Source: Prauserella salsuginis
GTDB taxonomy: Bacteria; Actinomycetota; Actinomycetes; Mycobacteriales; Pseudonocardiaceae
Direction of reading: 5' to 3'
NCBI RefSeq assembly: GCF_024648885.1
Contig: NZ_JANBBF010000013.1
Location: 1-64,000 of the forward strand
Length of the DNA stretch: 64,000 bases
Made by a program: the position numbers and the translations under genes. Below, piece after piece: positions 9,726 to 27,832 of the stretch (position 1 is its first letter; each line of letters starts with the position of its first letter). A model generated the notes under the pieces. It worked only from the letters and a program-made list of their open reading frames with translations, searched no databases and was not told the DNA's origin.

Positions 9726-9871
9726 GTGGGCAACGCTACCCGGGAACGAGCCGGCGCTGCCTCGTGATGTTCGGAGCCCCACGCGTCACCTGCACGCGAG
9801 CCGTGAAACTGCGCCGCGGCGTGACCTGTTCGACACTGAGCGTGCAGGCGGATCTTGGTGGGAGGGCGAGC

Positions 9872-11614
9872 GTGCGCACGATCCGATCGAAGGGCCCGCG
9901 TAGAAGCGCGGCGCTGCTGCTGGCAGTGGCTCTGACGGCGTTGACGATGACAGGTACGGCGCAGGCGGAGACGCTCGGCGGGTTCGAGATCGACGGCAAT
10001 CTCACCGCGGGCGACGACGGAGCGGACGGCGACGACTGGGCGAACGTCGTCAGTGGGCCGGCAGCCGCTGACCCGTTGGCCAGCCCGGACGACATCCACT
10101 TCGGAGGCGGCACCGAGGAGGAGGACCCGCAGACGTGGGTACCGGCCCAGGGAGCGGTCGAACCGGCATCCGACGACATCGGGAACGTCTACCTGCACAG
10201 CCGGCTCGTGGACGGATCGCAATGGGGTTTCTTCGGGTTCGAACGCTCCGCTTCGCAGGGTTCGACGACGTTCCGGATCGAACTGAACCAGCAACCCAAC
10301 ACGACCAACGCTCAGGGCATGTCGGTGCCGCAACGCACGGCGGGTGACTACCTTCTCGTGTTGGAACAGCATTCGAGCACGCAAGGCGTCGAGGTCGACA
10401 CCCTGTATCAATGGGACGGCGCGAGCTGGACGGATCTCGGGCCACCACCCGCAGGCTCGATCGTCGGCAGCAGCAACAACGACGCGCCGGTGCAGGACCC
10501 GTTCGACGGCAGTACCTATGAACGATTCGCGTTCGCCGAGGTCGCCGTCGATCTGAGTGCGCTGTACGGCGCAGCCGGCGCGTGCCCCGGTATTCCGCTC
10601 ACCACGATCAACGTCCGGTCCGCAGCCGGGACGGCGATGACGTCGCACCTGAAGGACTACGTGTCCCCACTCCAGGCCGATGTGCCCGACGGTTGCGGCG
10701 CGTTGCGGATCGACAAGCACGACACCACCGCCGACGGGCCGCTCCTGCCGGGTGCGGAGTTCGTCGTGGAGCCCAATCCCATCGCGGGTGCGGAGGAGCC
10801 GGATCTGCAGGTGACCGATGGCGGGCCACAGGACCCGGACGGGACCGCGGACGGCGTCGTCGAGTTCGACGCGGTCGAACCCGGCGTGTACACGGTCACC
10901 GAGGTGCAGGCTCCGCCGGGCTACGCCCCGGCTCCCGAGCCCACGGAGGCAACGGTCACGGCCGGTGACACGGCGGTCGTCGACGTCGTCGACCAGCGAC
11001 TTCCCGGTGAGATCACCCTGAGCAAGCGGGACGAGTCCACCGGCGAACCGCTCGACGGCGGGACGTTCCAGCTCTGGCTGGACGACGGCGACGGTGAGCT
11101 CGACCCCGCCACCGACACGGCCGTCGGAGCGCCGACGGGAACGACCGACGGCACGTACACGTGGTCGGATCTGGAATGGGGCGACTATCTCATCGAGGAG
11201 ACGGCCGCACCGGACGGCTACACGGCCGCCGACCCCGGATCGGTGGAGGTCTCGGCCGACTCGTTGTCGGTCGAGGTCGTCATGGAGAACTCGCCGACCG
11301 AGCCCGGCCCGACCCCGGATCCCACCCCGGATCCCACCCCGGATCCCACCCCGGATCCGACGCCCGATCCGACCCCGGACCCGACGACGGGGCCGGACAA
11401 CGGGGGCGGCGGCTTCGATCACGGTCCCAGCGGAGGCGCCGGACCGCCGGAGCCGCCCCTCGACCAGGGAGCACAGAACGTATCGAGTGACGAATCCGGT
11501 CCGTCGTCGTTGGCCGAGACGGGTGGCGCCCATCCGCAACTCGCGGGAGTCGGCCTGGTGTTCGTGGCGCTCGGCGGCCTCCTCGTCGCAGCCGCGCGTC
11601 GGCGGCAACCCTGA
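9872..11614 (+). CDS. SpaA/Cna-B-type surface protein with sortase-E-like anchor
   Basis: 580 residues: signal peptide (SAALLLAVALTALTMTGTAQA), an N-terminal domain of about 240 residues of unknown fold, and two SpaA/Cna-B immunoglobulin-like domains (about 277-377 and 378-475). Each of the two has an early Lys (RIDKHD; LSKRD) and a late Glu-containing strand (VYTVTEVQAPPGY; YLIEETAAPDGY) that could form an isopeptide bond. A TPDP repeat linker follows, then a sorting signal LAETG near residue 547, a hydrophobic helix and a basic RRRQP end. LAxTG suits class E sortases of actinobacteria. GTG 9872 is preceded by GGGAGGG. The product should be covalently attached to the wall; its ligand is unknown. 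Confidence 0.85.
   Translation: MRTIRSKGPRRSAALLLAVALTALTMTGTAQAETLGGFEIDGNLTAGDDGADGDDWANVVSGPAAADPLASPDDIHFGGGTEEEDPQTWVPAQGAVEPASDDIGNVYLHSRLVDGSQWGFFGFERSASQGSTTFRIELNQQPNTTNAQGMSVPQRTAGDYLLVLEQHSSTQGVEVDTLYQWDGASWTDLGPPPAGSIVGSSNNDAPVQDPFDGSTYERFAFAEVAVDLSALYGAAGACPGIPLTTINVRSAAGTAMTSHLKDYVSPLQADVPDGCGALRIDKHDTTADGPLLPGAEFVVEPNPIAGAEEPDLQVTDGGPQDPDGTADGVVEFDAVEPGVYTVTEVQAPPGYAPAPEPTEATVTAGDTAVVDVVDQRLPGEITLSKRDESTGEPLDGGTFQLWLDDGDGELDPATDTAVGAPTGTTDGTYTWSDLEWGDYLIEETAAPDGYTAADPGSVEVSADSLSVEVVMENSPTEPGPTPDPTPDPTPDPTPDPTPDPTPDPTTGPDNGGGGFDHGPSGGAGPPEPPLDQGAQNVSSDESGPSSLAETGGAHPQLAGVGLVFVALGGLLVAAARRRQP
11312..11383 (+). repeat. six 12-bp units encoding a TPDP linker
   Basis: Six in-frame 12-bp units (ACCCCGGATCCC and variants) code for (Thr-Pro-Asp-Pro)6. 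This is a stiff wall-spanning linker before the sorting signal. The first units are identical, so copy number may vary between strains. Confidence 0.85.
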
Positions 11615-12678: not shown

Positions 12679-12831
12679 GGACCGAACGTAGAACCTTCAC
12701 CAAGGTAGAGGTCAACCGCTGGATCGTCTCGGCAGGCGCGCGTGCAGCAGATGGCCGACCATGGAGCGCAGCAGTACGAACAGCGGCGGCGCCCGACCCG
12801 GAGGTGTCGTCGCAGGTGGAAGGACGATCCC

Positions 12832-13740
12832 GTGGCCGACACGAAGAATACCGGCGCCACGAACGCCGAGGCCGGCGCCGCGACCGTGGCCTTCCTCGGC
12901 GCAGGTGGACTGATGGGCCTGCCGATGGCGCGCAACCTCGCCCAGGCGGGCTTCGCGGTGCGCGCATGGAACCGCTCGCGGGAGAAGGCGGAGTCGTTGT
13001 CCGCCGACGGTGTGGTCGTGACCGACGACGTGACCACCGCGCTGACCGGTGCCGACGTGGTCGTGACGATGCTCGCCGACACCGGCGCGATCATCGAGTC
13101 GCTGGGCGACGAGTTGGACTCCCTGGCAGCCGACGCGGTGTGGCTGCAGACCAGCACGGTCGGCGTCGACGGCACCCAGCGACTCGCCGAGCTGGCCGCG
13201 GCGCACGACGTGGCGTTCGTCGACGCCCCCGTGCTCGGGACCAAGGCGCCCGCGGAGCGCGGCGACCTCGTCGTGCTCGCCTCGGGCCCCGAGGACGTCC
13301 GCGAACGGGCCGGCGCCGTGTTCGACGCGGTCGGCAAGAAGACGATCTGGGTCGGCGAGGCCGGCGCGGGCAGCAGGCTCAAGCTGGTCGCCAACGCGTG
13401 GGTGATGTCGCTGGTCGAAGCGACCGCCGAGACGGTCGCGCTCGCCGAAGGCCTCGACGTCGACCCGCAGCAGTTCCTCGACGCCGTCGCAGGCGGCCCG
13501 CTCGACCTGCCCTACCTGCAGGCGAAAGGCGCGATGATGATCGCCCGCGACTTCGAGCCGTCGATGAAGCTCGCCCTGGCGGCCAAGGACGCCCGGCTCA
13601 TCGACGCCGCCGCCGACGAGGCCGGACTCGACCTGCCGATGTTGCGCACCATCCGGCACCGCTTCGGCGAGGGCGTCGCCGACCACGGCGACGAGGACAT
13701 GGCCGCCACCTACCTCACCAGTAGCCCGGCCGACGGCTGA
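12832..13740 (+). CDS. NAD(P)-dependent beta-hydroxyacid dehydrogenase (3-hydroxyisobutyrate dehydrogenase family)
   Basis: 302 residues with the N-terminal dinucleotide motif FLGAGGLMGLPMARNLAQAG, the substrate region DAPVLGTKAPAERGDLVVLASG, and GAGSRLKLVANAW with the catalytic Lys. This is the 6-phosphogluconate-dehydrogenase-like fold of HIBADH/GLYR enzymes. Substrate could be 3-hydroxyisobutyrate, tartronate semialdehyde or a succinic-semialdehyde-type compound. GTG 12832 is placed behind GGAAGGA; the frame is open upstream. Confidence 0.88.
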   Translation: MADTKNTGATNAEAGAATVAFLGAGGLMGLPMARNLAQAGFAVRAWNRSREKAESLSADGVVVTDDVTTALTGADVVVTMLADTGAIIESLGDELDSLAADAVWLQTSTVGVDGTQRLAELAAAHDVAFVDAPVLGTKAPAERGDLVVLASGPEDVRERAGAVFDAVGKKTIWVGEAGAGSRLKLVANAWVMSLVEATAETVALAEGLDVDPQQFLDAVAGGPLDLPYLQAKGAMMIARDFEPSMKLALAAKDARLIDAAADEAGLDLPMLRTIRHRFGEGVADHGDEDMAATYLTSSPADG

Positions 13741-14573: not shown

Positions 14574-14978
14574 TCAGGGCAGGGCTGCGACGCCGGCCTC
14601 GGCGACCTCCGTGTCCTGCTCGACACTGCCCGCGCTCACGCCGATCGCGCCGATGACCTCGCCGTCGCGCTTCAGCGGGATGCCGCCGCCGAAGATCACC
14701 AGGCCGCCGTTGGTCACCTCGACGCCGTACAGCGGTGCGCCCGGCTGTGCGGCCTCGCCGAGTTGCGCGGTCGTCATCTTCAGCAGCGCCGACGTGCGCG
14801 CCTTGCGGGTCGCGATGTCGATGCTCGCCAGGATCGCGCCGTCCTGCCTGGCGAACGTCACCAGGTGCGCCCCGGCGTCGACGACGGCGACGTTCATCGG
14901 TTGGCCGATCTCCTCGGCCTTGGCCAGGGCGGCCTCGAGCACGGCCTTGGCGTCCGCGAGTGTCAGTGGTGCGGCCAC
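14574..14978 (-). CDS. HbpS/GlcG-like heme-binding protein (stand-alone PduO C-terminal domain)
   Basis: 134 residues, PF03928-type: LTLADAKAVLEAALAKAEEIGQPMNVAVVDAGAHLV, GVEVTNGGLVIFGGGIPLK, and GEVIGAIGVSAGSVEQDTEVAEAG. In enterobacterial pdu operons this domain is fused to the PduO cobalamin adenosyltransferase, where it binds heme; here it is alone. GTG 14978 follows GGAGGAACC on the coding strand and overlaps the reactivase small-subunit gene by 16 bases, so it is the last gene of the dehydratase operon. A role in cofactor or redox protection of the B12 enzyme is inferred. Confidence 0.85.
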   Translation of the reverse strand: MAAPLTLADAKAVLEAALAKAEEIGQPMNVAVVDAGAHLVTFARQDGAILASIDIATRKARTSALLKMTTAQLGEAAQPGAPLYGVEVTNGGLVIFGGGIPLKRDGEVIGAIGVSAGSVEQDTEVAEAGVAALP

Positions 14979-15361
14979 GGTTCCTCCATCCGTTCGGGGG
15001 CGTCCTTCAACGGCAGCCCGACGACGAGGCGGGCCGCGTTGTGCCCGCACCATCGGGCGCGGGCGGTATCTGTGGTGACGACGGGACGGTCGGCGGGGCG
15101 TTTCGCGTGGTGCACGCACACGCGGCCCTCGGCGTCGATGCCGACGCCCACGTCCAGCGGGGACTCCCGGGCTGCGGCGTGCGCCAGCTCGACCGCCGTG
15201 GCCGCCGACCCTGGGTCGCCGTCGGTGAGGCGCACCGGCACACCCTCCTCCTCGAGCCCGGCCAGCAGCTCACGCACGCCGCGCTCGCAGGCGCAGTGGG
15301 CGACGACGGCCGGTGGTGACCGGCGGTCCCGCTGGCCGCGGCGGTCGACGACGCCGCTCAT
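14963..15361 (-). CDS. pduH: diol/glycerol dehydratase reactivase, small subunit
   Basis: 132 residues resembling DdrB/PduH/GdrB: PAVVAHCACERGVRELLAGLEEEGVPVRL, then VELAHAAARESPLDVGVGID, and the C-terminal RWCGHNAARLVVGLPLK. The reactivase releases damaged cobalamin from inactivated dehydratase so that fresh adenosylcobalamin can bind. The fold resembles the dehydratase medium subunit, which it displaces. Its ATG overlaps the stop of the large reactivase gene (ATGA), so the two are made together. Confidence 0.88.
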   Translation of the reverse strand: MSGVVDRRGQRDRRSPPAVVAHCACERGVRELLAGLEEEGVPVRLTDGDPGSAATAVELAHAAARESPLDVGVGIDAEGRVCVHHAKRPADRPVVTTDTARARWCGHNAARLVVGLPLKDAPERMEEPWPHH

Positions 15362-17184
15362 CGGGCGCGTCCCGCGTGGTCGTCGACCAGGCCGGTCGCG
15401 ACGGCGTTGCGCGGCCCTTCGCGGCCGCGCACGTTGCCCGTGCCGCACACGATCCCGGCGCCCGCCACCGCCTCGGCGATCATGTCCGGGATCTCGAAGT
15501 CCAACGCCGAACCGCCGAGCACCACCACGAACCCGATCTCCCGCAGGTTCCCGCCCGGTGCGACCCGTTCCAGCGCACGCAGAGCGTTGACGACGAACAC
15601 CTTGTGCTTGGCCGACCTGCGCACCTGACGGACCTTCTCCAGTGAGTGCCGCGTCGGCACGGGCCGCATGCCCTCCTCGCCGAGCACGACCACGCGTGCG
15701 AACGCCTCGGAGGGCAGCGGTTCGTCGAAGAAGCGCGCCGTGCCGTCCTCCATGCGCACGTGGAAGAAGCTCTCGGCCTTCGCGAGCGGGTTCTTCTTGA
15801 TGTCCTCGGCGACCTCGCGGTTGTCGAGTCCGAGCTCGGAGTCGATCAGCTTCGTCACCAGGTCGCCGGCGCCCGCCAGATGGACCGAGCGGACCTCGCC
15901 GTCGCCCGTGGCGAGCGCGGCGTCGGTGGAGCCGCCGCCGAGGTCGAGCACCGCCAGCGGCCGCTCGGTGCCAGGGGTGGTCAGCGCACCCAGCACGGCC
16001 ATGTCGGCCTCGACCCCGCCGACCAGCACGGCCACGCCGAGCGCCGAGCGCAGCTGCTCGGCGAGCACCTCCATCGGAGCACGGCTCGTGCGCACCATCG
16101 CCGCCAGCGCGACCGCGTTCTCCAGCGCGAACTCGCCCGCCAGCGCGCCGGTGACGCGCTGCGGGACGAACGTGTCGACCGCCAGCACGTCCTGGATGCG
16201 CACCTCCTGCTCACCGGCCGTGTCCGACAGCGTTTCCGCCATGGCGTCGCGAACCGTGGCCAGCATCCCGCCGACGTGGCTTCCCGCCTCGCCGGTCGCG
16301 TCGGCCAACGGGGCCACCCGGCGCAGGGTCGCCATGATCTCCTCGGCGCCGGCGTCGATGCCCACCGACAGCCGCGCGTGCTCGCCGATGAGCGTCAGCG
16401 TCCCCGCAGGGATCCGGCGGTCGGCGATGTCGCCGGAGGGCGTGCGCACCACGACGGCCGACCGATTGCCCACCAGCGCCCTGGCCACGGGTGCGACGAG
16501 GCGGGTCTGATCGGGGTCGAGGTCGAACAGCGTCGCGATGCCGTACGAGTTGGACAGCGTGCGCACCGTTCTGCCCGGTTCGGCCACCTCCACGGCCGCG
16601 GGCATGCCCAGCGGCACCTTCTCGACCAGCGTCACCTCGTCGACCACCGGGATCGGCGCGGGCAGCCGGTTGACGATCAGGTTCGCGTCGTCGGCGCACG
16701 CGATCGCACCGGTCACCTCGACACCGCGGTCGCGGGCGGCGGCGATCCCGGCGGCGGCGTCCTCGAAGTCAACGCCCGCGCCGACCACGCAGATGACCTG
16801 CTCGCCTGGCGTGCACGCGCCGAGCTCGGCGAACGCGACGGTCGTGCCGGTGCCGAGACCCGCACCCGCAGGGGTGTCCGGGTTGTGCCCGATCATCGTC
16901 GACTCGGTGATCACGGTCTCTGTGATCGTCTCCATCGCCAGCCCGCTGATCACCGGTGTCGCCTCGTTGACCAGCACCGCCGACAGCTCGTGCGGACCGC
17001 GCCCCGCCGCCGACAGCGCCTCCTGCACCACCTTGACCACGCCGGGCACGTTCTCGGCCGTGCCCTTCACCCCGGACGTCGGCGCGAGCGCCCCGCCCAG
17101 GTAGCGCGGGCCGTCGGGGCCGAGCTCGGCCAGACACGCCTCGGTGGTCGAGTTTCCGATGTCGACGCCGGCCAGCAGTGTCAC
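15358..17184 (-). CDS. pduG: diol/glycerol dehydratase reactivase, large (ATPase) subunit
   Basis: 608 residues, the usual length for DdrA/PduG. The actin-like ATPase signature appears at the N-terminus (GVDIGNSTTEACLAEL) and again as AVLDLGGGSTDAALATG, with LNETPVISG-type and IGHNPDTPAGAGLGTG blocks. It works with the small subunit in ATP-driven exchange of inactive cobalamin. GTG 17184 lies four bases after the stop of the medium-subunit gene. Presence of both reactivase parts argues that the dehydratase is functional. Confidence 0.93.
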   Translation of the reverse strand: MTLLAGVDIGNSTTEACLAELGPDGPRYLGGALAPTSGVKGTAENVPGVVKVVQEALSAAGRGPHELSAVLVNEATPVISGLAMETITETVITESTMIGHNPDTPAGAGLGTGTTVAFAELGACTPGEQVICVVGAGVDFEDAAAGIAAARDRGVEVTGAIACADDANLIVNRLPAPIPVVDEVTLVEKVPLGMPAAVEVAEPGRTVRTLSNSYGIATLFDLDPDQTRLVAPVARALVGNRSAVVVRTPSGDIADRRIPAGTLTLIGEHARLSVGIDAGAEEIMATLRRVAPLADATGEAGSHVGGMLATVRDAMAETLSDTAGEQEVRIQDVLAVDTFVPQRVTGALAGEFALENAVALAAMVRTSRAPMEVLAEQLRSALGVAVLVGGVEADMAVLGALTTPGTERPLAVLDLGGGSTDAALATGDGEVRSVHLAGAGDLVTKLIDSELGLDNREVAEDIKKNPLAKAESFFHVRMEDGTARFFDEPLPSEAFARVVVLGEEGMRPVPTRHSLEKVRQVRRSAKHKVFVVNALRALERVAPGGNLREIGFVVVLGGSALDFEIPDMIAEAVAGAGIVCGTGNVRGREGPRNAVATGLVDDHAGRAR

Positions 17185-17188
17185 GGCC

Positions 17189-17779
17189 TCAACCGGCGTC
17201 GGCCAGCCGGATCCGGACGTCCAGCTCGACCGGCGGCGCACCGGGCGTCACGAACTCGGTCTCTTTGATGTGCAGCAACGCCGCCTTGGCCTGCCAGCGG
17301 GGCCGGGCCATGTAGTCGTTGCGCGCGGGCACGGGTTCCGGCGACTCACCCTTGGCGTACCGCGCGGCGTTGCGGCCGACCTTGCGGAAGGTCTCCGGAT
17401 CGAGCAGCGGCGCCTGCGGGAACAACTCCAGATTGGACAGTCGGACGAGGTCCTTCTGGTGGATCATCGTCGTGCCGCGTGACAGCACGCCGACACCGAT
17501 GCCCGAGCCCGACAGCCGCGCCGCAGCGTGGGCGATCACCGCGAGGTCCGAGCCACCGCGGTATCGGACCACCCGCGCGTGCACGCCCTGCTCCTCGACC
17601 CCGGCGAGGAGTTCGCGCAGCACCTCGGCGTGCGGGATCTCCACGATCGTCTTGGTGAAGAAGTCCCCGAACGCGGGGGAGAGGCCGATGACGACCTCGT
17701 CCGGACGGGTACCCACCGCGGCCTCACCACGCTCGACCGCATCGAGCACCCGCTCGGGTCGCGCTTCCATGCTCGTCAT
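17189..17779 (-). CDS. pduD: B12-dependent diol/glycerol dehydratase, medium subunit
   Basis: About 197 residues, closer in length to glycerol dehydratase DhaC than to PduD, lacking a long N-terminal extension. Family blocks: [71 protein letters not shown], and [15 protein letters not shown]. With the large subunit it holds adenosylcobalamin. I use ATG 17779; a second ATG at 17770 is possible, and neither has a strong ribosome site. Confidence 0.92.
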
Positions 17780-17795
17780 GGCAGGAGGTGTCCTT

Positions 17796-19502
17796 TCAGC
17801 CGATTTCCTCTTCGGGATTGCTGGCACTGACGACATGGCGAAGGCGTTTCATCTCGCGCCAGCGTTCGCCCGCGGGGCGGTAACCACTGCCGGGGCCCGC
17901 ATAGTCGTTGGCATCGTTGACCGCGGACAGGGTCTCCAGCTCGGGCGTCAGGATCGCCGAGGTGTGCAGCAGATCGCCGGACACCCGGTGCCGCAGCACC
18001 GACAGCAACGTCCGGGCCATGTCGCTGTAGCCGGACGCCTCGAGCGCCTTGATCACGTCGAGTCCGGTGATCCCCCGGTCCATGACCGACTGGGCGGCCT
18101 TGAGGTCTTCCAGCACGTCCCGCATCGGCAGGTCCTGGCTGCCGTGCGCGTACGTGGCTGCCTCGACCTCCTTGTCGGTGATGGCCGGCAGTCCGAGCTG
18201 GGCGAACACGGCCTGCAACGCGCGGGCGGCCCTGCTACGCGCGGCCAGCAGTTCCTCCTCCGGAACGTGCCGCAGCGCGCCGTCCACCTGCAGATCGCGC
18301 TGGATGGTGTTCCAGTCGTCGTAGTCGGTGGAGTCCAGGTTGGAGCCGGCGAACATGTTGTCGTAGTTGGGCACCGCCGAGTAGCCGGAGCACACGAAGT
18401 CCGTGCCCGACAGCAGCTGCGGCAGCAGCCGCGCGGTGCGGCGCATGTCCGAGTGCGAGAACGACTGGTCGTTGCCGGAGGCGCATTCGAGGTCGGCCGT
18501 GCTGGCGAGCAGGTTCTCCGCCAGCACCGCGCGGATACCCGCCGGTACGGCGCCCGGCACGCCGATACAGCTGATCGAACCGTTCTGCAGCCCCTGCACA
18601 CCTGCGCCCTTCGCGACGAGGATGCAGCGGATCTCCAGGTACAGCATCGAGCGGCCCTCGGCGTTGCCCATCTGCACCTCGGAGCCGGTGCCCGAGGTGA
18701 AGCGCATCTTGATGCCCCGCGAGGCGTACGCCGAAGCCAGGAACGCCTTCGACCACGGCGTGTCGTCGCCGTCGCAGAACACCGGCTCCGTGCCGTAGAC
18801 GGAGATCGTCTCCGCGTAGGCGGTGATGCCGCGCATGCCGAGCTCCAGCTCCGTGGCCTCTTCGAGAGCGCACTGGGTGAGCGCGCCCGGCGTGCCGGCC
18901 AATGCTCCGACCTGCAGCGCGATCGCCACGAGCGGCGCGTAGCGCACCACACCGAGCGTCGTCTCCAACTCCCGGAACCCGCGCAGCGACGCCTCGGCCG
19001 CCTCGGCGGCGACCTGCACCGGGTTGTCGCGCGCGCTCGTGGAATGCGCCTGGTTGGCGGGTGTGCGCCGGGCGCGCATCTTCTGCAGCGCCTGCATCAT
19101 CTCGACGACGTTCATCGTCTTGACGACCTCGAGCAGCGCGGCGGGCGTCAGACCGCCCGCGACCTCGACGACCTCCGACCGCGTCACCGTGGGGTCGACC
19201 AGCATGCGCGCCACCTCGACCGGTTCGAGCGACATGGCGCGTTCGGCCACCGACACGTCGATCGCGTGATCGGCGATGAACTGGTCGAGGAAGTCGAACT
19301 CGGCACGCGGCTTGCCGTCCATCTCCACGATGACGCCGTCGGTCACCCGCACGCTCGGCGCCGGGTCGTACGGGCTGTCCATCGCGACCATGCCGACCTC
19401 GGGCCACTCCTCGACGAACCCGTCGAGGTTGACCGGACGCTCTTCGAGCGCCTCGGTGCGCTTGGATTTCGGACTCGATACCGGAAGCGGTTCCGCAGTC
19501 AT
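17796..19502 (-). CDS. pduC: B12-dependent diol/glycerol dehydratase, large (catalytic) subunit
   Basis: 568 residues against about 555 in characterised enzymes. Diagnostic stretches are [63 protein letters not shown] and [19 protein letters not shown]-like. These form the (beta/alpha)8 barrel that dehydrates 1,2-propanediol, glycerol or ethanediol to an aldehyde by a radical mechanism. ATG 19502 follows AAGGAG. Substrate preference cannot be read from the sequence by eye. No encapsulation-type N-terminal peptides or shell genes are seen near it. Confidence 0.94.
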
Positions 19503-19632
19503 CGTCGGATCTCCTTGCTGCGTGCGGAGGTTGAGTTGTTCCGGGGCTGAGCTGTTCCGGGGCTGGGTTGTTTTGGGGCTGGGCTGCAGTGGGACTGAGC
19601 TGAGCCTTTTCGGGGCTGCGCTCTCCCGGACT

Positions 19633-19704
19633 GTGGAGCTGGGCCGGGTTGTGGAGCTGTGCCGGGTTGTGGAGCTGTGCCGGGTTGTGGAGCTGTGCCG
19701 GAGG
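19633..19704 (+). repeat. four tandem 18-bp repeats inside the dehydratase operon
   Basis: Four head-to-tail copies of GTGGAGCTGTGCCGGGTT begin at 19633, 19651, 19669 and 19687; the first has one change and the last diverges at its end. They fill part of the 297-bp gap between the small- and large-subunit genes. That gap is otherwise G/T-rich on the plus strand and holds no credible gene. Confidence 0.9.
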
Positions 19705-19799
19705 AACACCCTCCCGAAGGAGCCGATTCGCCAGCTGGGCGACGCGTGCCCCTACCCGGTGGCGAGTCGTCCCGACTGCGGCAGCCCTGGCCGGTGGTG

Positions 19800-20234
19800 T
19801 CAGGCCAGGATGTCGCGGCGCTCGTAGACGTCGGCGGCCTCGCGCACCAGTTCGGCGCACAGGGTCGCCGAGTACTCGCGTTCGAGCCGGTCGGCGATGT
19901 CGGTCAGCTGCTGTTTCGTCGACGCGTTCGGTCGCAGCGAGTTGTAGATCGACAGGACGAGGTCGTCCGGCAACGCGGTCAGCTCGGCGGCGCGGCGGAA
20001 GTTGCGTGCCAGCTGGGTACGGCCCACCTGCTCGGCGATCTGTGCCTGCAACCGCAGCGTGTCAGGGGAGATGCGCAGGTCTTCGGCGGCGACGTCGCCG
20101 GAGAGCACAGCCTGCATTGTCAGCTCGTCGATCGGTTTACCCGTCGGAGTGCGGAGCAGCTCCGGCCGATGGGCCGCGAGCGGATAGTCGCGCCCCGGGT
20201 CGAGTTCCACCTGGTCGGGAAGCGTCACCGCCAT
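19800..20234 (-). CDS. pduE: B12-dependent diol/glycerol dehydratase, small subunit
   Basis: 144 residues with the small-subunit core DYPLAAHRPELLRTPTGKPIDELTMQAVLSG, ISPDTLRLQAQIAEQVGRTQLARNFRRAAELTALPD and the basic helix end YNSLRPNASTKQQL. It is first in the operon, whereas E-type subunit genes normally follow C and D; the order here is E-C-D. ATG 20234 has GCAGGTG just upstream. The promoter and a paired operator repeat lie within about 90 bp upstream. Confidence 0.92.
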   Translation of the reverse strand: MAVTLPDQVELDPGRDYPLAAHRPELLRTPTGKPIDELTMQAVLSGDVAAEDLRISPDTLRLQAQIAEQVGRTQLARNFRRAAELTALPDDLVLSIYNSLRPNASTKQQLTDIADRLEREYSATLCAELVREAADVYERRDILA

Positions 20235-20302
20235 CACCTGCCTTCGTCTGTGAAGCCGGTATCGGGTGTCGAATCTATGTGCAGCGAATCTAGGTTCGGG
20301 GA

Positions 20303-20322
20303 CGTTGCACCAACGTTGCACC
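20303..20322 (-). promoter_or_regulatory. paired 9-bp operator repeat upstream of the dehydratase operon
   Basis: On the minus strand GGTGCAACG occurs twice, starting 11 bp apart (plus-strand copies 20303-20311 and 20314-20322). That is about one helical turn, 70-90 bp upstream of the small-subunit start. The same spaced pair is found before the aldehyde dehydrogenase gene at 22108-22127. The expected binder is the GAF/winged-helix regulator encoded between them; this is inference. Confidence 0.65.
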
Positions 20323-20443
20323 CGACGTGGCGGGCGCCCCGCGTCGTACGCGGTGTTCGGTTGTGGATCGCCGACGGCGGCCCGTGGGTGGCCACCGTCG
20401 ACCGTCGGCCTGCGGGGACCGTCAACGGTCACCGCACGCCTCG

Positions 20444-21970
20444 TCAGTCATCGTCGTCGCTGTCGAGCAGCCAGGCCAGCCGGGCGTCCGCGACCGGGCG
20501 ACGCGGGTCGCCCGCCGGAAGGACGCGCGTGAGGTGTTCGAACACCTCGACGTCGTCGCGGCCGGGTTCCCCCTCGGACAGCGACCACAGGGCATCGGGG
20601 TCGCCGCTGTCGAGGACGGCCGTGCGCAGGGCCACGGTGCGCTGTTCGCGTTCCGCCCTGATCGTCGGCGATTCCGACCGGGGCAGCAGCGGTGCGGTCG
20701 CGATCGAGGCCGCGGTCACGACCTCGCCCGCGGCGAGGGCGTCGCGTACTCGCAGGAAGTCGGCGTCGACGTCGGCGGAAAGCCGGTACGGCTTGGCGAG
20801 CAACGCATCGCCGAGCTCGGTACGCAACCGGTGCACCTCGGCGCGCACCGTCGTGGGGTTTCCTGCGTCGCCGTAGAGGTGCAACGCCAGTTGCTCCGCG
20901 GTCAGCCCTCCGGGATGTAGCGCCAGCAGCGCGAGAATCTCCGCCCTGCGCAGCGTCAACGGCACGGTGCGACCGCCCAGCTGCGCCTCGGGCGCCGAGC
21001 CGAGGAACGATAGCCGCAGGGTCGGCGCAGCCGGGCGCGTGGAGATCGTCTTCCCGCCCTTGCGCGGCAGCCGGAGCAGGTACCCGCCCGACAGCGGTTC
21101 GAGCAGCGCCTCGCGGCCGTCCAGGTCGATCCGGTCGCTGTCGGGGTCGACGGCGACGCGGTGGGGGAACGTGCCGAGCGGATTCGCGGCGATGACCCTG
21201 CCGGACGTCGTGAGCAGGGCGCCCGGTTCGCCGCCGAGTCGTTCGAGACGGGGCAGGTTCCGCCTGCGCAGGCGTTCGTCGGCGTCCTCCATACGCAGCC
21301 GCAGGTGGTTCTCCGCGACCTGCGCGGTGGCGTTGACCAGCGACACCATCGCCGGATGCAGCGTGTCCAGCCTGCCGCTGACGTCGATGGCGCCCAGCAC
21401 CCTGCCGGTGTCGGGGTCGTGGATCGGGGCCGCGGCGCACGTCCACGAGTGGTAGGTGCGCACGAGGTGCTCGGCAGAGTAGATCTGCACCGGTGTGTTC
21501 GTGGCGAGGGCGGTCCCCATGGCGTTGGTGCCGATCGCCGACTCGGCCCAGCGCGTGCCCTCGCGCAGCCCGACGGAGTCCGCCAGCCTGCACACTCCGG
21601 AAGGGCCCTCCCGCCACAGGATCGTGCCGTCGGCGTCGGTGACAATCGTGATGTGCTGCGCCTCGTCGGCGATGCTCACCAGCAGTTCCCGCAGCGGTGG
21701 CAGCACCGTGTGCAGGGGGTGGGATTCGCGCACGTCGTCGATCTCGTCGTCGTCGTACACCAGCGGTGGCAGATAGTCGTCGGGATCCACGCCGGTCGCC
21801 AGTGACCGGCGCCAGGACTCCGAGATGACCGTCCGCGGTGCCGCCCGACCGCTCGCGCCGCCGATCTCCTCGTCACTGAGCGCGGCGTCGCGGATCTGCT
21901 GCAGCACTCGCTGCTGAGCGATCGGATCCGACGCGCTGTGCAGTGCGTTCGGGGCGGGTTGGGATCTCAT
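20444..21970 (-). CDS. GAF-domain transcriptional regulator with C-terminal winged helix
   Basis: 508 residues. The N-terminal [18 protein letters not shown] and GAF-like region ([61 protein letters not shown]) match the AcoR-type sensor half. The C-terminal half has no AAA+ or Fis domain. It carries instead a winged-helix-type region ([31 protein letters not shown]...[13 protein letters not shown]) as found in actinobacterial regulators beside aldehyde dehydrogenase genes. It is divergent from that gene and upstream of the dehydratase operon, so it probably senses an aldehyde or alcohol and controls both. Confidence 0.85.
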
Positions 21971-22107
21971 GGACACTCCGCTACGGCGACGGTGACGGGC
22001 GGTGCTGTCGTTCGAGCATGCCCCGCTCGCGCTGCCGAGGGCAAGCAAATGACACGAGGTGCCCCTTGGTGCCACCCGCCCGGTGCGCCGCACGTCGCAG
22101 GCGTGCT

Positions 22108-22127
22108 GGTGCAACGCGCCTGCAACG
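22108..22127 (+). promoter_or_regulatory. paired operator repeat upstream of the aldehyde dehydrogenase gene
   Basis: GGTGCAACG at 22108-22116 is followed by CCTGCAACG at 22119-22127, again with an 11-bp period, 60 bp before the ATG of the aldehyde dehydrogenase gene. The first copy is identical to the repeats before the dehydratase operon; the second differs in two leading bases. Confidence 0.65.
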
Positions 22128-22186
22128 TGGCGCTTCCTACGTTCGGCGTCGAAGGCAGTGAAATCGAGCAGAGAGGCTCTTTTCGG

Positions 22187-23710
<1,524 letters not shown>

Positions 23711-23715
23711 CGGCC

Positions 23716-24090
23716 ATGAGCAGAGTGGATCTCACCGACGCCGCGGCGGACCTGCTGCGACAACTGGCCGGCGAGCACGGGCCGCTGATGTTCCACCAGT
23801 CCGGCGGCTGCTGTGACGGCAGCGCTCCCATGTGCTATCCGGCCGGTGAGTTCCGCACCGGCGAGGCGGACGTCCACCTCGGCGACCTCGACGTCGCCGG
23901 GGTGGCCGATCCCGTTCCGGTGTGGATGTCGCGGGCGCAGTTCGAGTACTGGCAGCACACGCACCTGACCATCGACGTGGTGAGCGGGCGTGGCAGCGGA
24001 TTCTCGCTCGAGGCGCCGGAGGGCGTGCGGTTCCTGATCCGTTCGCGGTTGCTGACCGACGACGAACTCGCCGAGATCGGACGGTCCTGA
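23716..24090 (+). CDS. DUF779 protein, aldehyde dehydrogenase partner
   Basis: 124 residues with the DUF779 core GPLMFHQSGGCCDGSAPMCYP, VWMSRAQFEYWQHTHLTIDVV and GFSLEAPEGVRFLIRSR. The function is not known, but the gene is regularly found directly behind ExaC/AldA-type aldehyde dehydrogenases, here with a 5-bp gap. Three Cys in a SGGCCDGSAPMC cluster suggest metal or redox chemistry. Confidence 0.9.
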   Translation: MSRVDLTDAAADLLRQLAGEHGPLMFHQSGGCCDGSAPMCYPAGEFRTGEADVHLGDLDVAGVADPVPVWMSRAQFEYWQHTHLTIDVVSGRGSGFSLEAPEGVRFLIRSRLLTDDELAEIGRS

Positions 24091-24395: not shown

Positions 24396-25847
24396 TCACG
24401 GGGCGCGGTCGGGGACCGTGATGCGGTACTGGCGGATCTTGCGGTAGATCGTGGCCCTGCCGAGGCCCAGTTGCTCGGCCGCCTCGCTGACGGTCGTGCC
24501 CGGTTCGGTCAGGCAGCGAACGATCTCGTCGCGTTCCACCGACTGCAACCTGGTCAGCGGATGGCCCGGTCCGGTGAACACTTCGGTTGCCAGGTGGTGG
24601 AGGTCGATGCGGTCGGTCCTGGCCGCGGCCTCGCGGACGACCCGGCGGAGACTGCGGACGTTGCCAGGCCAGTCGAAGCCGGTCAGCGTCCGGGCGGCAG
24701 CAGGGGTGAAGTCGATCTCGCGACCCCGGGCCTGGTGGGCGAAATGCCTGGCCAGCGGCATGATGTCGGCGGGGCGGAACCGCAGGGCCGGCACTTCGAC
24801 GACCACGTCGACCAGCTCGCGGAGCTCGGTCGGCAGCGTGTCCGCCGAGGCGGCGGTGACCACGTAGGGCTGGACGCCGTCGGTGGCCCGCACCCGGGTG
24901 AACAACTGCGCGAGCTCGGTCGTCGCCCACGCGGGTAGGCTGTCGACCCCGGACACGATCACACAGGTGCTCTCCTTACCGAGTTCGGGAACCCACAGCT
25001 CGAACCACGACTCGACGTCCTCGGGCGTGGGCGGCCGAGCGCTCAGTACCCGTTCGCGGCGCAGTTCGCGGCGCGCCAGGGACGCGAGTGCGGTCTTGCC
25101 GGTACCCGGTTCGCCGACCACGGCGACCGCCAGGCCGCGCCGGAACGCCGTGCGCGCCTCGGCGAACGCGCTGCGCCATCCCGCCGTGGGCAGGCCCTCC
25201 TCGGGTGCGCGCGAGCGGTCGGCGTAGACGCGGAACACCTCGCCGTGCGGGGTGGGAGGAGCGGCCCTGCCGGTTCCCCTGGCCAGCATCAACGCCGACG
25301 TGTTGGCCGCCGCCGACTGCGCCAGCGCCATCAGCAGTTCCGGCGCGGAATCGGACCAGGTCGTGAGGTTGACGCTGCCCGCGACGTCGCCCGTGGGGTC
25401 GACCACCGGTGCTGCCGCGCACGTGTATCCGCGCAGGCCGGTGCAGTAGTGCTCGTCGGCGCGCACCAGCGACGGCGCGCGGTCGGCCAGCGCGAGTCCG
25501 AGGCCGTTCGTGCCGGCGTTGCGCTCGGCGAAGTAGAAACCCGGGGCGAGGTGCACGCGGTCCAGTGAGCGGTTGATCGTGGCGTCCTCCGACAGCCTGC
25601 TCAGTACGAGCCCGTCGGGGTCGGTGATCATCATGCTGACCGGTTCGTTCGCCAGTGTCCGCTGCAGGCCGCGCAGTACCTCGTTGCCGCATTCGTACAG
25701 CAGCGATTCGGTGTCGACCGACCCCGTGAACACGGGCCGGATCTCGTCGGCCGCAAGGCCGTAGCGCTCGCTGCGGCGCCAGGATGCGCGGAGCCGTGGT
25801 GCTCCGCCCTGCGGGCCCGCGGAGAGCGCGAAGTCGTCGCGGTGCAT
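24396..25847 (-). CDS. AcoR/MimR-like regulator with degenerate sigma-54-type AAA+ domain
   Basis: 483 residues: an N-terminal GAF-like sensor (residues about 60-205, with FAERNAGTNGLGLALAD and GYTCAAAPVVDPTGDVAGSVNL). A central ATPase region follows with Walker A GEPGTGKTALASL and a Walker-B-like CVIVSGVDSLP. The C-terminal Fis-type helix-turn-helix is TVSEAAEQLGLGRATIYRKIRQY. The GAFTGA loop that contacts sigma-54 is missing, fitting actinobacteria, which lack that sigma factor. It is divergent from the amidohydrolase/ADH operon and resembles MimR, activator of propane-monooxygenase genes; the likely targets are the divergent genes. Confidence 0.87.
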   Translation of the reverse strand: MHRDDFALSAGPQGGAPRLRASWRRSERYGLAADEIRPVFTGSVDTESLLYECGNEVLRGLQRTLANEPVSMMITDPDGLVLSRLSEDATINRSLDRVHLAPGFYFAERNAGTNGLGLALADRAPSLVRADEHYCTGLRGYTCAAAPVVDPTGDVAGSVNLTTWSDSAPELLMALAQSAAANTSALMLARGTGRAAPPTPHGEVFRVYADRSRAPEEGLPTAGWRSAFAEARTAFRRGLAVAVVGEPGTGKTALASLARRELRRERVLSARPPTPEDVESWFELWVPELGKESTCVIVSGVDSLPAWATTELAQLFTRVRATDGVQPYVVTAASADTLPTELRELVDVVVEVPALRFRPADIMPLARHFAHQARGREIDFTPAAARTLTGFDWPGNVRSLRRVVREAAARTDRIDLHHLATEVFTGPGHPLTRLQSVERDEIVRCLTEPGTTVSEAAEQLGLGRATIYRKIRQYRITVPDRAP

Positions 25848-25922
25848 GTGAGCCTCCCGAGCGCGTCATTGCGCCTTCCCGAGTCAGACAACCACAGCGT
25901 GCCCCGAACCTCAGCGGTCCAG

Positions 25923-25941
25923 GTGTCTCAAAGTGAGACAC
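25923..25941. promoter_or_regulatory. perfect palindrome between regulator and amidohydrolase operon
   Basis: GTGTCTCA-AAG-TGAGACAC: 8-bp arms with a 3-bp centre, 75 bp before the regulator start and 80 bp before the amidohydrolase start. It is placed and shaped like an upstream activator site for the AcoR-like protein. Binding is inferred. Confidence 0.7.
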
Positions 25942-26021
25942 GCATGGGGTCCCGGGGACTCCCGGGCGCTCGTAGCGTTCCCGCACCACGTGCCACCGGC
26001 GCCACGTACGGGAGGAGACCC

Positions 26022-27053
26022 ATGTACACCAAGGACGGCGAGAAGTACTTCATTCTCGACGCGCACGTAGCACTCTGGGACGCCCGTCCCGAGAATCAGC
26101 GCAACATCCACGGGAAGCAGTTCATCGACTGCTTCTACGACTATCACCGCAACCTCAGCCCGGAATCCGAGGTGTGGCCGTACGAGGAGTACCTGTATCA
26201 GGGCGGGGAGCGGCTGATGCGCGACCTGTTCACCGACGGCTACGTGGACCACGCGATCTTCCAGCCCGCGCTGCTGAGCGCGTTCTACAACAACGGGTTC
26301 GGCCAGACGGAGGAGGCGTTCGCGCTCGCGCAGCGGCATCCGGACAAGCTGACCTACAACCACTGCTGGGACCCGCGGTTCGAGCAGGCGGGACTCGACC
26401 AGCTCAAGCGCGACGCCGAGCGGTTCGGGCTGAAGGGCGTCAAGCTCTACACGGCCGAGTGGCAGGGGGATTCGCGCGGCTACAAGCTCGACGACCCGTG
26501 GTCGTACCGGTATCTGGAGGCCTGCCAGGAACTGGGCATCCGCAACATCCACATCCACAAGGGCCCGACGATCCGCCCGCTCGACCGAGACGCCTTCGAC
26601 GTGGCCGACATCGACAAGGTCGCCACGGACTTCACTGATCTGAACATCATCGTCGAGCACTGCGGATTGCCGCGGCTCGAGGACTTCTGCTGGATCGCCA
26701 CGCAGGAACCGAACGTGCACGCGGGCCTGGCGGTGGCCATGCCGTTCATCCACTCGCGGCCGCGCTATTTCGCCCAGATCATCGGCGAGTTGCTGTACTG
26801 GCTGGACGAGGACCGCATCCAGTTCTCCAGTGACTACGCGATCTGGACGCCGAAGTGGCTCGTGGAGCAGTTCGTCGACTTCCAGATCCCGGAGGACATG
26901 GTCGAGTACGCGCCGCTGACCACGGCGCAGAAGAAGAAGATCCTCGGGCTGAACGCGGCGAAGATGTACGACATCGACGTGCCCGCCGAATGCCGGTTGC
27001 CCTCCGGCGAGGACTCCACCGGCAACAAGACCGAAGCCGTGGCGGTGGCCTGA
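26022..27053 (+). CDS. amidohydrolase-family protein of the propane-monooxygenase-cluster type
   Basis: 343 residues with a TIM-barrel amidohydrolase_2 pattern: KYFILDAHVALWDARPENQ, then FIDCFYDYHRNLSPES, NIHIHKGPTIRPLDRDAF, IIVEHCGLPRLEDF and IQFSSDYAIWTPKW. The early metal motif, normally His-x-His, reads H15-V-A17, so one ligand appears missing. The other His and Asp positions are present. Relatives sit directly after mimABCD/prmABCD monooxygenase genes, where their function is unproven. ATG 26022 follows GGAGGAGA. Its stop overlaps the next start (TGATG). Confidence 0.85.
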   Translation: MYTKDGEKYFILDAHVALWDARPENQRNIHGKQFIDCFYDYHRNLSPESEVWPYEEYLYQGGERLMRDLFTDGYVDHAIFQPALLSAFYNNGFGQTEEAFALAQRHPDKLTYNHCWDPRFEQAGLDQLKRDAERFGLKGVKLYTAEWQGDSRGYKLDDPWSYRYLEACQELGIRNIHIHKGPTIRPLDRDAFDVADIDKVATDFTDLNIIVEHCGLPRLEDFCWIATQEPNVHAGLAVAMPFIHSRPRYFAQIIGELLYWLDEDRIQFSSDYAIWTPKWLVEQFVDFQIPEDMVEYAPLTTAQKKKILGLNAAKMYDIDVPAECRLPSGEDSTGNKTEAVAVA

Positions 27054-27832
27054 TGGGTGCCGCGACGAACGAGCCGGCCGGCGCGGATGCCGCTGCCGTG
27101 GTGGGATCCGCGGCTGATGCGCCGCTGCTGGAGCGGGCACGTGCGGCGCTGGGCACCGTCGTCGATCCCGAACTCGACGAGCCGATCACCGACCTCGGAT
27201 TCGTCCGGTCGATGGACGTCGCCGACGGTGAACTGGTGGTGCACCTGCGGCTGCCGACGTCGTTCTGCGCACCCAACTTCGCCTACCTCATGGCGTCGGA
27301 CGCGAAGGACGCGCTGCTCGCACTCGGCGTCGCGGCCACGGTGCGGCTCGACGACCACCACGATTCGGAGATCATCAACCGCGGGCTGGCCGCCGACGCC
27401 GGTTACCGCGGCACGTTCGGCGACGAGGCCGACGAGGACCTCGACGACCTGCGGCTGACGTTCCGCCGCAAAGCGCACACCGCGGCGATGGAACGGGCGC
27501 TCACGCGGTACCTGCGTGCCCATCCCGACCTGCCGGAGGAGGGCCTGCACGCGGTCACTCTCGGCGACCTGCCCGCCGACGACGCCACCCGCGCGCTGCT
27601 GCGGCACCGCCGCACGCTCGGGCTGTCCACCGCGGCCGACCGGCCCGCGCTGATCGGCCCGGACGGTGAGTCCTGCTCACCGGAGGACGTGCCGTGGCGA
27701 TTGCGGGTCGCGCGTTCGCTGCGCGTGTCGATGGACGGCAACGCGCATTTCTGCCGCGGTCTGCTGCGTACCCGTTACCCCGATTCGGCGGCCGACCAGT
27801 CGCCCCGAGCATTCCAGGAGAAGGTGTCATGA
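27053..27832 (+). CDS. DUF59/MIP18-domain protein
   Basis: 259 residues. Residues about 25-105 match the DUF59 iron-sulfur assembly domain (RARAALGTVVDPELDEPITDLGFVRS, LRLPTSFCAPNFAYLMASDA); the rest is a long extension seen in the version from propane-oxidation clusters. It probably helps maturation of a metalloenzyme, but the monooxygenase it usually accompanies is absent. The gene overlaps both neighbours (1 base and 4 bases), so it is tightly coupled. Confidence 0.82.
   Translation: MGAATNEPAGADAAAVVGSAADAPLLERARAALGTVVDPELDEPITDLGFVRSMDVADGELVVHLRLPTSFCAPNFAYLMASDAKDALLALGVAATVRLDDHHDSEIINRGLAADAGYRGTFGDEADEDLDDLRLTFRRKAHTAAMERALTRYLRAHPDLPEEGLHAVTLGDLPADDATRALLRHRRTLGLSTAADRPALIGPDGESCSPEDVPWRLRVARSLRVSMDGNAHFCRGLLRTRYPDSAADQSPRAFQEKVS

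What the first reader, a model, noticed from the sequence alone, without database searches (positions are those of the whole stretch)
14574..24090. Shell-less B12 diol/glycerol dehydratase operon wired to an aldehyde dehydrogenase
Sequence shows small-large-medium dehydratase subunits, both reactivase subunits and a HbpS-like protein in one minus-strand operon, next to a regulator and an ALDH/DUF779 pair. Known diol-dehydratase pathways are often enclosed in microcompartments to contain the aldehyde; no shell, phosphotransacylase or CoA-dependent aldehyde dehydrogenase gene is visible. Inference: the cell drains the aldehyde directly with a CoA-independent ALDH, giving propionate or 3-hydroxypropionate. 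Unusual gene order (E-C-D).
Basis: partly seen in the sequence, partly recalled or inferred. Interest (0 to 1): 0.72.

Follow-up and report, generated by a model that had tools for sequence, protein, structure and literature searches.

The report
Shell-less B12 diol dehydratase operon
A soil-type actinobacterium carries a vitamin-B12 enzyme set that probably turns small diols into toxic aldehydes without the usual protein shell, and beside it a dehydrogenase that probably removes the aldehyde by oxidising it to an acid; the arrangement recurs in related bacteria but has been little studied.

Summary
Confirmed. A Prauserella-like genome encodes on the minus strand (14574-21970) a regulator, an AdoCbl diol/glycerol dehydratase (small-large-medium), both reactivase subunits and an HbpS-like protein; a divergent NAD aldehyde dehydrogenase (ExaC family) and DUF779 adjoin. 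The 99.95%-complete genome has no BMC-domain protein, no PduL and no PduP above cut-off. The order is not odd: 78 of 80 retrieved relatives read E-C-D-G (two are cut by contig ends), none with a shell gene in the flank held. ExaC at 70% identity or more lies nearby in 36 of 80, in three arrangements. Acyl-CoA synthetase and MIP-channel genes recur; some mycolicibacteria add ethanolamine ammonia-lyase. The regulator's fold resembles DhaR's sensor half joined to an AfsR-type half. Nearest known system: the Klebsiella dha regulon (shell-less, recalled), with oxidation replacing reduction as aldehyde sink. Most likely: diol to aldehyde (B12), to acid (ExaC), to acyl-CoA. Substrate unproven: 1,2-propanediol slightly favoured, then glycerol or ethylene glycol. 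Novel reading not excluded: the HbpS-like protein, nearer in score to the formaldehyde sensor EfgA than to PduO's C-terminal domain, senses the aldehyde. New variant of a known kind.

The parts
20444..21970 (-). regulator: DhaR-like GAF sensor half joined to an AfsR-like C-terminal half (508 aa)
   Evidence: PF01590 GAF 43.1 bits (on the longer ORF); NCBIfam DhaR only 63.9 of 551 bits; AlphaFold model pLDDT 82.8; Foldseek best 4lrx DhaR(N) E 1.7e-11, TMt 0.60, and 8k60 AfsR complex E 8.6e-6, TMt 0.50
19800..20234 (-). dehydratase small (gamma) subunit, PduE/DhaB3-like, 144 aa with the start chosen
   Evidence: PF02287 191.6 bits; PDB 5yrt_C, 1dio_G, 1iwp_G; start chosen; longer in-frame starts exist
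17796..19502 (-). dehydratase large (alpha) subunit, PduC/DhaB1-like, 568 aa
   Evidence: PF02286 980.3 bits; 1iwp 815.8, 1dio 813.1 bits; AAGGAG before the ATG at 19502
17189..17836 (-). dehydratase medium (beta) subunit, PduD-like; longest start given
   Evidence: PF02288 118.5 bits; NF011616 298.1 against 248; 1dio_B 216.9 bits
15358..17184 (-). reactivase alpha (PduG/DhaF-like), 608 aa
   Evidence: TIGR04491 884.7 bits; 2d0o_A 645.8, 1nbw_A 633.7 bits
14963..15361 (-). reactivase beta (PduH/DhaG-like), 132 aa
   Evidence: PF02288 87.8 bits; 1nbw_B 58.4, 2d0o_B 57.3 bits
14574..14978 (-). HbpS-like/DUF336 protein, 134 aa, possible aldehyde sensor
   Evidence: PF03928 140.2 bits; EfgA 6bws 117.6, PduOC 5cx7 92.4, OrfY 2a2l 87.0 bits
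22187..23710 (+). NAD-type aldehyde dehydrogenase, ExaC family, divergent from the regulator
   Evidence: NF050026 953.6 against 900 bits; 9fm9 858.2 and 9koi (ExaC) 770.3 bits; GEVCT motif, start read
23716..24090 (+). DUF779 protein directly after the ALDH, function unknown
   Evidence: PF05610 157.1 bits; found in 21 of 80 loci
21971..22186 (.). intergenic region between the divergent regulator and ALDH genes
   Evidence: read; no promoter scan was run

Best explanation
A shell-less diol-utilisation module built like the enterobacterial dha regulon but with an oxidative sink. The AdoCbl-dependent dehydratase (E-C-D) turns a short 1,2-diol into an aldehyde in the cytosol; the PduG/PduH-like reactivase restores inactivated enzyme; the ExaC-family ALDH oxidises the aldehyde with NAD to the acid; an acyl-CoA synthetase (linked in some relatives, an unlinked 72%-identical gene here) would make the CoA ester. 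A DhaR-like regulator is expected to control the divergent genes. Shown by sequence: the parts, conserved active-site positions, absence of BMC-domain proteins, PduL and PduP-grade ALDH, and the recurrent linkage. Inferred: activity, substrate (1,2-propanediol slightly favoured, then glycerol or ethylene glycol), flux through ExaC, and regulation.
For: Single dehydratase in the genome. The residues I recall as active site in the Klebsiella enzyme (Q141, H143, E170, E221, Q296, D335, S362) are invariant in all 16 rows of A1, and the phmmer table runs 2-545 on 2-545 to 1dio (the 1dio alignment itself was not printed). No PF00936 or PF06130, no PduP above cut-off. By eye the window's PduD and PduE lack the N-terminal helix plus Pro/Ala linker seen on both proteins in the BMC-linked control G188. 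No shell homologue by tblastn in the held flanks of 80 named loci, 64 with full flanks. ExaC at 70% identity or more in 36 of 80 loci (33 of the 64 with full flanks), in three arrangements. In 22 family genomes with dehydratase, ExaC lies within about 5 kb in 14, the only copy in 10 of those 14. Acyl-CoA synthetase 11, MIP 25 and GlpK 13 of 80 loci (samples identified); unlinked synthetase of 72% identity here. In M. smegmatis, ALDH MSMEG_1543 and dehydratase MSMEG_1546 are 2 of only 8 genes changed, all down, in a mnoS/R deletion under carbon limitation (PMC11303327, passages). One separate adenosyltransferase in the genome.
Against: No assay. ExaC is also in 13 of 20 dehydratase-free family genomes tried, out of 128 such genomes, so it is not exclusive to this pathway, and 8 of 22 dehydratase genomes have it unlinked. 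31 of 64 full-flank loci lack it at 70% identity. The four synthetases scanned score highest with the two PrpE models but below their cut-offs (for L070 757.4 of 955 and 724.9 of 827.4), while 3 of the 4 pass the broader acetate--CoA ligase subfamily cut-off (657): propionate is therefore weakly supported. PduL was absent even in BMC-bearing genomes. The second BMC-linked control, G515, did not show the encapsulation-type N-termini, so their absence is not proof of a free enzyme. E is 297 bases from C in the window. In PMC11303327 no MnoR site was found at these two genes.
Confidence: 0.75

Rival explanations
1. Glycerol is the substrate: glycerol to 3-hydroxypropionaldehyde, then to 3-hydroxypropionate, or reduced to 1,3-propanediol as PMC5430705 draws for M. 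smegmatis DhaB (MSMEG_1546-49).
For: GlpK-like gene in 13 of 80 loci and MIP-channel gene in 25 of 80 (1 GlpK over its cut-off, 2 MIP scanned of which 1 over its cut-off); DhaR-like sensor half; K. pneumoniae glycerol dehydratase is the best PDB match by a hair, 815.8 against 813.1 bits.
Against: The GlpK links are in 12 mycobacterial loci and one Geodermatophilus, none in the window's own clade; the two PDB scores do not separate glycerol from diol enzymes.
Confidence: 0.3
2. Dehydratase and ALDH are separate functions that happen to sit together: ExaC/DUF779 handles acetaldehyde from ethanol or ethanolamine.
For: ExaC occurs without dehydratase in 13 of 20 family genomes tried; 11 of 80 loci also hold ethanolamine permease and EutB-like genes (one of each scanned), which would make acetaldehyde.
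Against: Linkage in three arrangements in at least four families; in the 4 of 22 genomes with two ExaC copies the linked one is the more similar; shared response of MSMEG_1543 and 1546 (PMC11303327).
Confidence: 0.15
3. The operon is cargo of a microcompartment encoded elsewhere.
For: G067, same genus, has three PF00936 genes on another contig.
Against: 0 PF00936 in the window's genome; 25 of 31 dehydratase genomes have none; no encapsulation-type N-termini seen.
Confidence: 0.03

Closest known systems
dha regulon of Klebsiella pneumoniae (DhaB, DhaF/DhaG, OrfW, OrfY, DhaR, DhaT; composition recalled)
   Same: Shell-less (recalled) AdoCbl dehydratase, two-subunit reactivase, stand-alone DUF336 protein (OrfY described in PMC4923194, passages) and a DhaR-type sensor half.
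   Different: Beside an NAD-type aldehyde dehydrogenase, not DhaT; order E-C-D-G-H-HbpS; regulator C-terminal half AfsR-like; adenosyltransferase unlinked here.
Pdu microcompartment of Salmonella, Propionibacterium and others
   Same: Same dehydratase, reactivase and DUF336 families.
   Different: No BMC-domain shell protein, PduL or PduP-grade ALDH; DUF336 protein not fused to the adenosyltransferase.
MSMEG_1543-1554 cluster of Mycolicibacterium smegmatis
   Same: By locus numbers in papers (PMC5430705, PMC8866557, PMC11303327, passages: ALDH 1543, dehydratase 1546-1549, EutB/EutC 1553-1554) it matches the layout of L146, L088 and others here; 1547 is expressed (PMC4881515, passages).
   Different: Adds ethanolamine genes. 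Its sequence was not fetched. No paper devoted to the module was listed by the searches made.
EfgA formaldehyde sensor (Methylorubrum)
   Same: Highest-scoring solved match to the HbpS-like protein; counterparts of K57, S114, D121 kept.
   Different: Those residues are also kept in PduOC, OrfY and NahX; EfgA has no conserved gene context (PMC8153426, passages).

Membership tests
AdoCbl diol/glycerol dehydratase | alpha, beta, gamma subunits with conserved active-site residues | tested here: met
   (active-site list recalled)
AdoCbl diol/glycerol dehydratase | catalytic activity on a diol | not testable with these tools
   needs purified enzyme
Pdu microcompartment | BMC-domain shell proteins in the genome | tested here: not met
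   PF00936 0 matches; controls E. coli and Synechococcus ring; PF03319 not searched
Pdu microcompartment | CoA-acylating PduP and PduL | tested here: not met
   PduL also missing in the BMC-bearing genomes sampled
Pdu microcompartment | N-terminal encapsulation peptides on PduD/PduE | tested here: not met
   by eye; present in G188, not seen in the other BMC-linked control G515
dha regulon | dehydratase, two reactivase subunits and stand-alone DUF336 protein, no shell (recalled) | tested here: met
dha regulon | regulator DhaR | tested here: inconclusive
   NCBIfam DhaR 63.9 of 551 bits; fold of the sensor half matches DhaR(N)
dha regulon | linked 1,3-propanediol dehydrogenase DhaT | tested here: not met
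   no iron-type ADH among the 20 proteins at 8048-34357 scanned; the genome was not searched for it
ExaC acetaldehyde dehydrogenase | equivalog score above cut-off | tested here: met
   953.6 against 900 bits
EfgA aldehyde sensor | formaldehyde-contact residues K57, S114, D121 | tested here: met
   K 70 of 70; S and D 69 of 70 with one gap each, but also kept in PduOC, OrfY and NahX, so not discriminating
EfgA aldehyde sensor | falls in the EfgA clade | tested here: inconclusive
   split from PduOC/OrfY supported only 70 SH-aLRT, long branches
PduO C-terminal haem protein | haem-coordinating His18 | tested here: not met
   window has Lys; 68 of 70 operon homologues have another residue, 1 (L116) has His, 1 a gap; residue from PMC4923194

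The most novel reading that the evidence does not exclude
The HbpS-like protein is an aldehyde sensor of the EfgA type dedicated to this operon: in shell-less actinobacteria, containment of the toxic aldehyde is replaced by sensing it (slowing growth or translation) plus a dedicated oxidative sink. It is found in 76 of 80 loci against 36 for ExaC, is the only PF03928 protein in the window's genome, and lacks the PduO haem ligand.
Probability: 0.15. Interest if true: 0.75.

Novelty: new variant of a known kind. Interest (0 to 1): 0.45.

Why it matters
Why diol pathways need a shell is an old question. A lineage that keeps the radical enzyme without shell or PduP is a natural experiment: it predicts that fast oxidation, and perhaps an aldehyde sensor, can stand in for containment. 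The layout also resembles the engineered glycerol-to-3-hydroxypropionate route (dehydratase plus ALDH, as in papers listed), so its enzymes could be of use there.

Tried and rejected
Cargo of a distant microcompartment: rejected. Odd gene order as a sign of rearrangement: rejected, conserved. Haem role by analogy with PduOC: weakened, since His18 is replaced in 68 of 70; not excluded, because PMC4923194 reports Thr or Gln there in its bacterial structural homologues, including the haem-binder HbpS, and Gln is the commonest residue here. B12 riboswitch: no Rfam match at 8000-36000. DUF779: no PDB relative and a poor model (pLDDT 47.9), so no fold search. HbpS tree: unresolved. Nine literature searches listed no paper devoted to this shell-less actinobacterial module; I saw listings, and passages of the papers cited; supplements were not available and the library lacks most subscription journals. 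The ORF caller behind the neighbour counts misses genes (PduE in 53, PduD in 52 of 80 loci against 78 and 80 by tblastn), so counts of MIP, GlpK, synthetase and EutB are lower bounds. The PduE length figure (median 10 residues before the YPL motif, 77 loci) takes the nearest start codon and so leans short.

It also left out that 3 of 4 synthetases pass the acetate-ligase subfamily cut-off and that the G515 control lacked encapsulation-type N-termini.
Full report
What is there. The window lies in a 5.64 Mb, 99.95%-complete genome; its dehydratase large subunit is 98% identical to those of Prauserella halophila and P. alba. On the minus strand run a GAF regulator (21970-20444), dehydratase small (20234-19800), large (19502-17796) and medium (17836-17189) subunits, reactivase alpha (17184-15358) and beta (15361-14963), and an HbpS-like protein (14978-14574). 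Divergently lie an ExaC-family aldehyde dehydrogenase (22187-23710) and DUF779 (23716-24090). Assignments. Large subunit through HbpS overlap or abut. The small-to-large gap is 297 bases here and holds tandem repeats; it is short in most relatives.

No shell. PF00936 finds nothing in the genome while ringing in E. coli and Synechococcus; PF03319 was not searched. PF06130 (PduL) finds nothing in 31 genomes, BMC-bearing ones included, so it discriminates little. The PduP/EutE profile gives 20 matches, none above cut-off; the window's own ALDH scores 23.8 of 403 bits. The 31 dehydratase-bearing actinobacterial genomes are 22 of 150 from the family (own included) and 9 more from the phylum sample, where 10 of 396 had it, own included. 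Of these 31, 6 have PF00936 genes, and only in G188 and G515 are they beside the dehydratase. In G188, PduD and PduE carry N-terminal extensions of the encapsulation type; the window's do not, by eye. G515, the other BMC-linked genome, showed no such extension either: its PduE is short and its PduD frame is continuous with PduC. So this test is supportive, not decisive. None of the 80 named loci has a shell homologue in the flank held; 64 of 80 have full flanks.

Conservation. The 78 loci in which all subunits were found read E-C-D-G; two are cut by contig ends. In a 42-row tree 31 actinobacterial E-C-D sequences and one from Corallococcus form a group with 99% SH-aLRT support, next to K. pneumoniae DhaB1 and the G188 enzyme with 85%. 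One sequence outside that group, from G324, also has the order E-C-D (L060). Found within the flanks of 80 loci: HbpS-like 76, reactivase beta 75, GAF regulator 40 (38% identity or more), ExaC 36 (70% or more), DUF779 21. ExaC stands in three arrangements: upstream and divergent (19), upstream on the same strand (16, mycobacterial) and downstream on the same strand (1, Parafrankia).

Is the ALDH link more than chance? In the 22 family genomes with dehydratase, ExaC is present in 22 and single-copy in 18 at the threshold used. It lies within about 5 kb of the dehydratase in 14, including 7 of 7 of the genus (positions compared by eye). In the 4 genomes with two copies the linked one is the more similar. 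Against this, 13 of 20 dehydratase-free family genomes tried, of 128, also have ExaC (Fisher p 0.003, not corrected for relatedness), and 31 of 64 full-flank loci lack it. So ExaC is a general enzyme that has repeatedly been tied to this operon.

Pathway. By ORF clustering, 11 of 80 loci carry an acyl-CoA synthetase. Four were scanned: each scores highest with the PrpE models but under their cut-offs, and 3 of 4 pass the broader acetate-ligase subfamily cut-off. Acid activation is thus supported; the acid is not identified. In eight loci (L070, L072-L077, L083) the gene stands next to or near the ALDH or the regulator; L083 has no ExaC in its flank. MIP channels are in 25 loci (2 scanned, 1 over cut-off), glycerol kinase in 13 (1 scanned), ethanolamine permease and EutB in 11 mycobacterial loci (1 of each scanned). 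The window's genome has an unlinked synthetase of 72% identity and one unlinked adenosyltransferase. The chain diol, aldehyde, acid, acyl-CoA is therefore genetically complete in sister lineages. I slightly favour 1,2-propanediol in the window's clade; ethylene glycol (to acetate) and glycerol remain open. Activity and substrate are inference.

Regulator. The AlphaFold model (pLDDT 82.8) matches the E. coli DhaR N-terminal half (E 1.7e-11, TM by target 0.60, 17% identity) and, in second place, AfsR in Streptomyces initiation complexes (E 8.6e-6, 0.50, 21%). By sequence the DhaR model gives only 63.9 of 551 bits. I read it as a DhaR-type sensor half on a SARP-type DNA-binding half; that each match covers the half I assign is inferred from the order of domains, since the table gives no ranges.

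HbpS-like protein. Its best solved match is EfgA (117.6 bits), then PduOC (92.4) and OrfY (87.0). The EfgA formaldehyde-contact residues (PMC8153426, passages) are kept in 69-70 of 70 homologues, but also in PduOC, OrfY and NahX. The PduOC haem ligand His18 (PMC4923194, passages) is Lys in the window and another residue in 68 of 70; one homologue has His and one a gap. It is the only PF03928 protein in the window's genome, and 7 of 7 genus genomes have it in the operon. The tree does not resolve its place. PMC8153426 itself suggests functional overlap of EfgA and PduO through the aldehyde.

Literature (passages only). M. smegmatis appears to hold the same cluster by locus numbers: MSMEG_1546-49 named glycerol dehydratase (PMC5430705), 1547 listed with two other large subunits (PMC8088520), 1547 expressed on three carbon sources (PMC4881515), 1546-1548 in a zinc-limitation study (PMC8866557). 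MSMEG_1543 (ALDH) and 1546 are two of eight genes changed, all down, in a mnoS/R deletion under carbon limitation, without a recognised MnoR site (PMC11303327). PMC4207490 describes Mycobacterium/Rhodococcus BMC loci with diol dehydratase genes on the opposite strand and argues that the shell does not use them, with a bifunctional shell as alternative.

Verdict. Real, conserved and shell-less as far as tested. The coupling to a CoA-independent-type ALDH has good genetic support. The oddity is overstated, because the dha regulon is a shell-less precedent (recalled) and the order is typical here. Interest is moderate, higher if the DUF336 protein proves to be an aldehyde sensor.

Noticed in passing
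window 25842-28854: Amidohydrolase, FeS_assembly_P (DUF59) and zinc ADH run in a row, a set that I recall as the tail of propane-monooxygenase operons; no monooxygenase gene was seen among the neighbours scanned. The amidohydrolase and ADH stand beside the operon in 3 of 80 named loci, all Prauserella.
   Followed up: partly
window 24396-25847: Second GAF regulator (AcoR-like by my reading) with AAA lid and Fis-type HTH, between DUF779 and the amidohydrolase.
   Followed up: partly
window 19532-19701: Tandem repeats (16- and 18-base units) between the small and large subunit genes; the spacer is long and unlike in the nearest relatives.
   Followed up: partly
L088, L089, L090, L091, L095, L096, L099, L104, L110, L113, L146: In these mycobacterial loci the dehydratase cluster is joined to ethanolamine permease and EutB-like genes; 9 of the 11 also have ExaC in the flank. 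Two B12 enzymes may share one ALDH, with no shell gene in the held flanks.
   Followed up: partly
L134: The myxobacterium Corallococcus terminator carries an E-C-D dehydratase (large subunit 76% identical to the window's) with an HbpS-like gene: possible horizontal transfer.
   Followed up: partly
L059, L061, L062, L064 (G279, G327, G333, G386): A second group of actinobacterial dehydratases in genomes without PF00936; C-D-E order in L059, L061 and L064 (only PduC found in L062), no HbpS-like gene in the stretches held, some of which are short.
   Followed up: partly
L066 (G515): In this BMC-linked locus the PduD reading frame is continuous with PduC, a possible fusion of large and medium subunits.
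   Followed up: no
window 23716-24090: DUF779 has a conserved stretch HQSGGCCDG..PMC in most of 17 aligned homologues; no solved relative; role beside ExaC unknown.
   Followed up: partly
window 12742-13740: 3-hydroxyisobutyrate-dehydrogenase-like gene next to the operon in 4 of 80 loci (three Prauserella and Saccharomonospora sp. CUA-673); could act on 3-hydroxypropionate if glycerol is the substrate.
   Followed up: no
window 9764-11614: SpaA-type prealbumin-fold repeat protein, possibly cell-surface.
   Followed up: no
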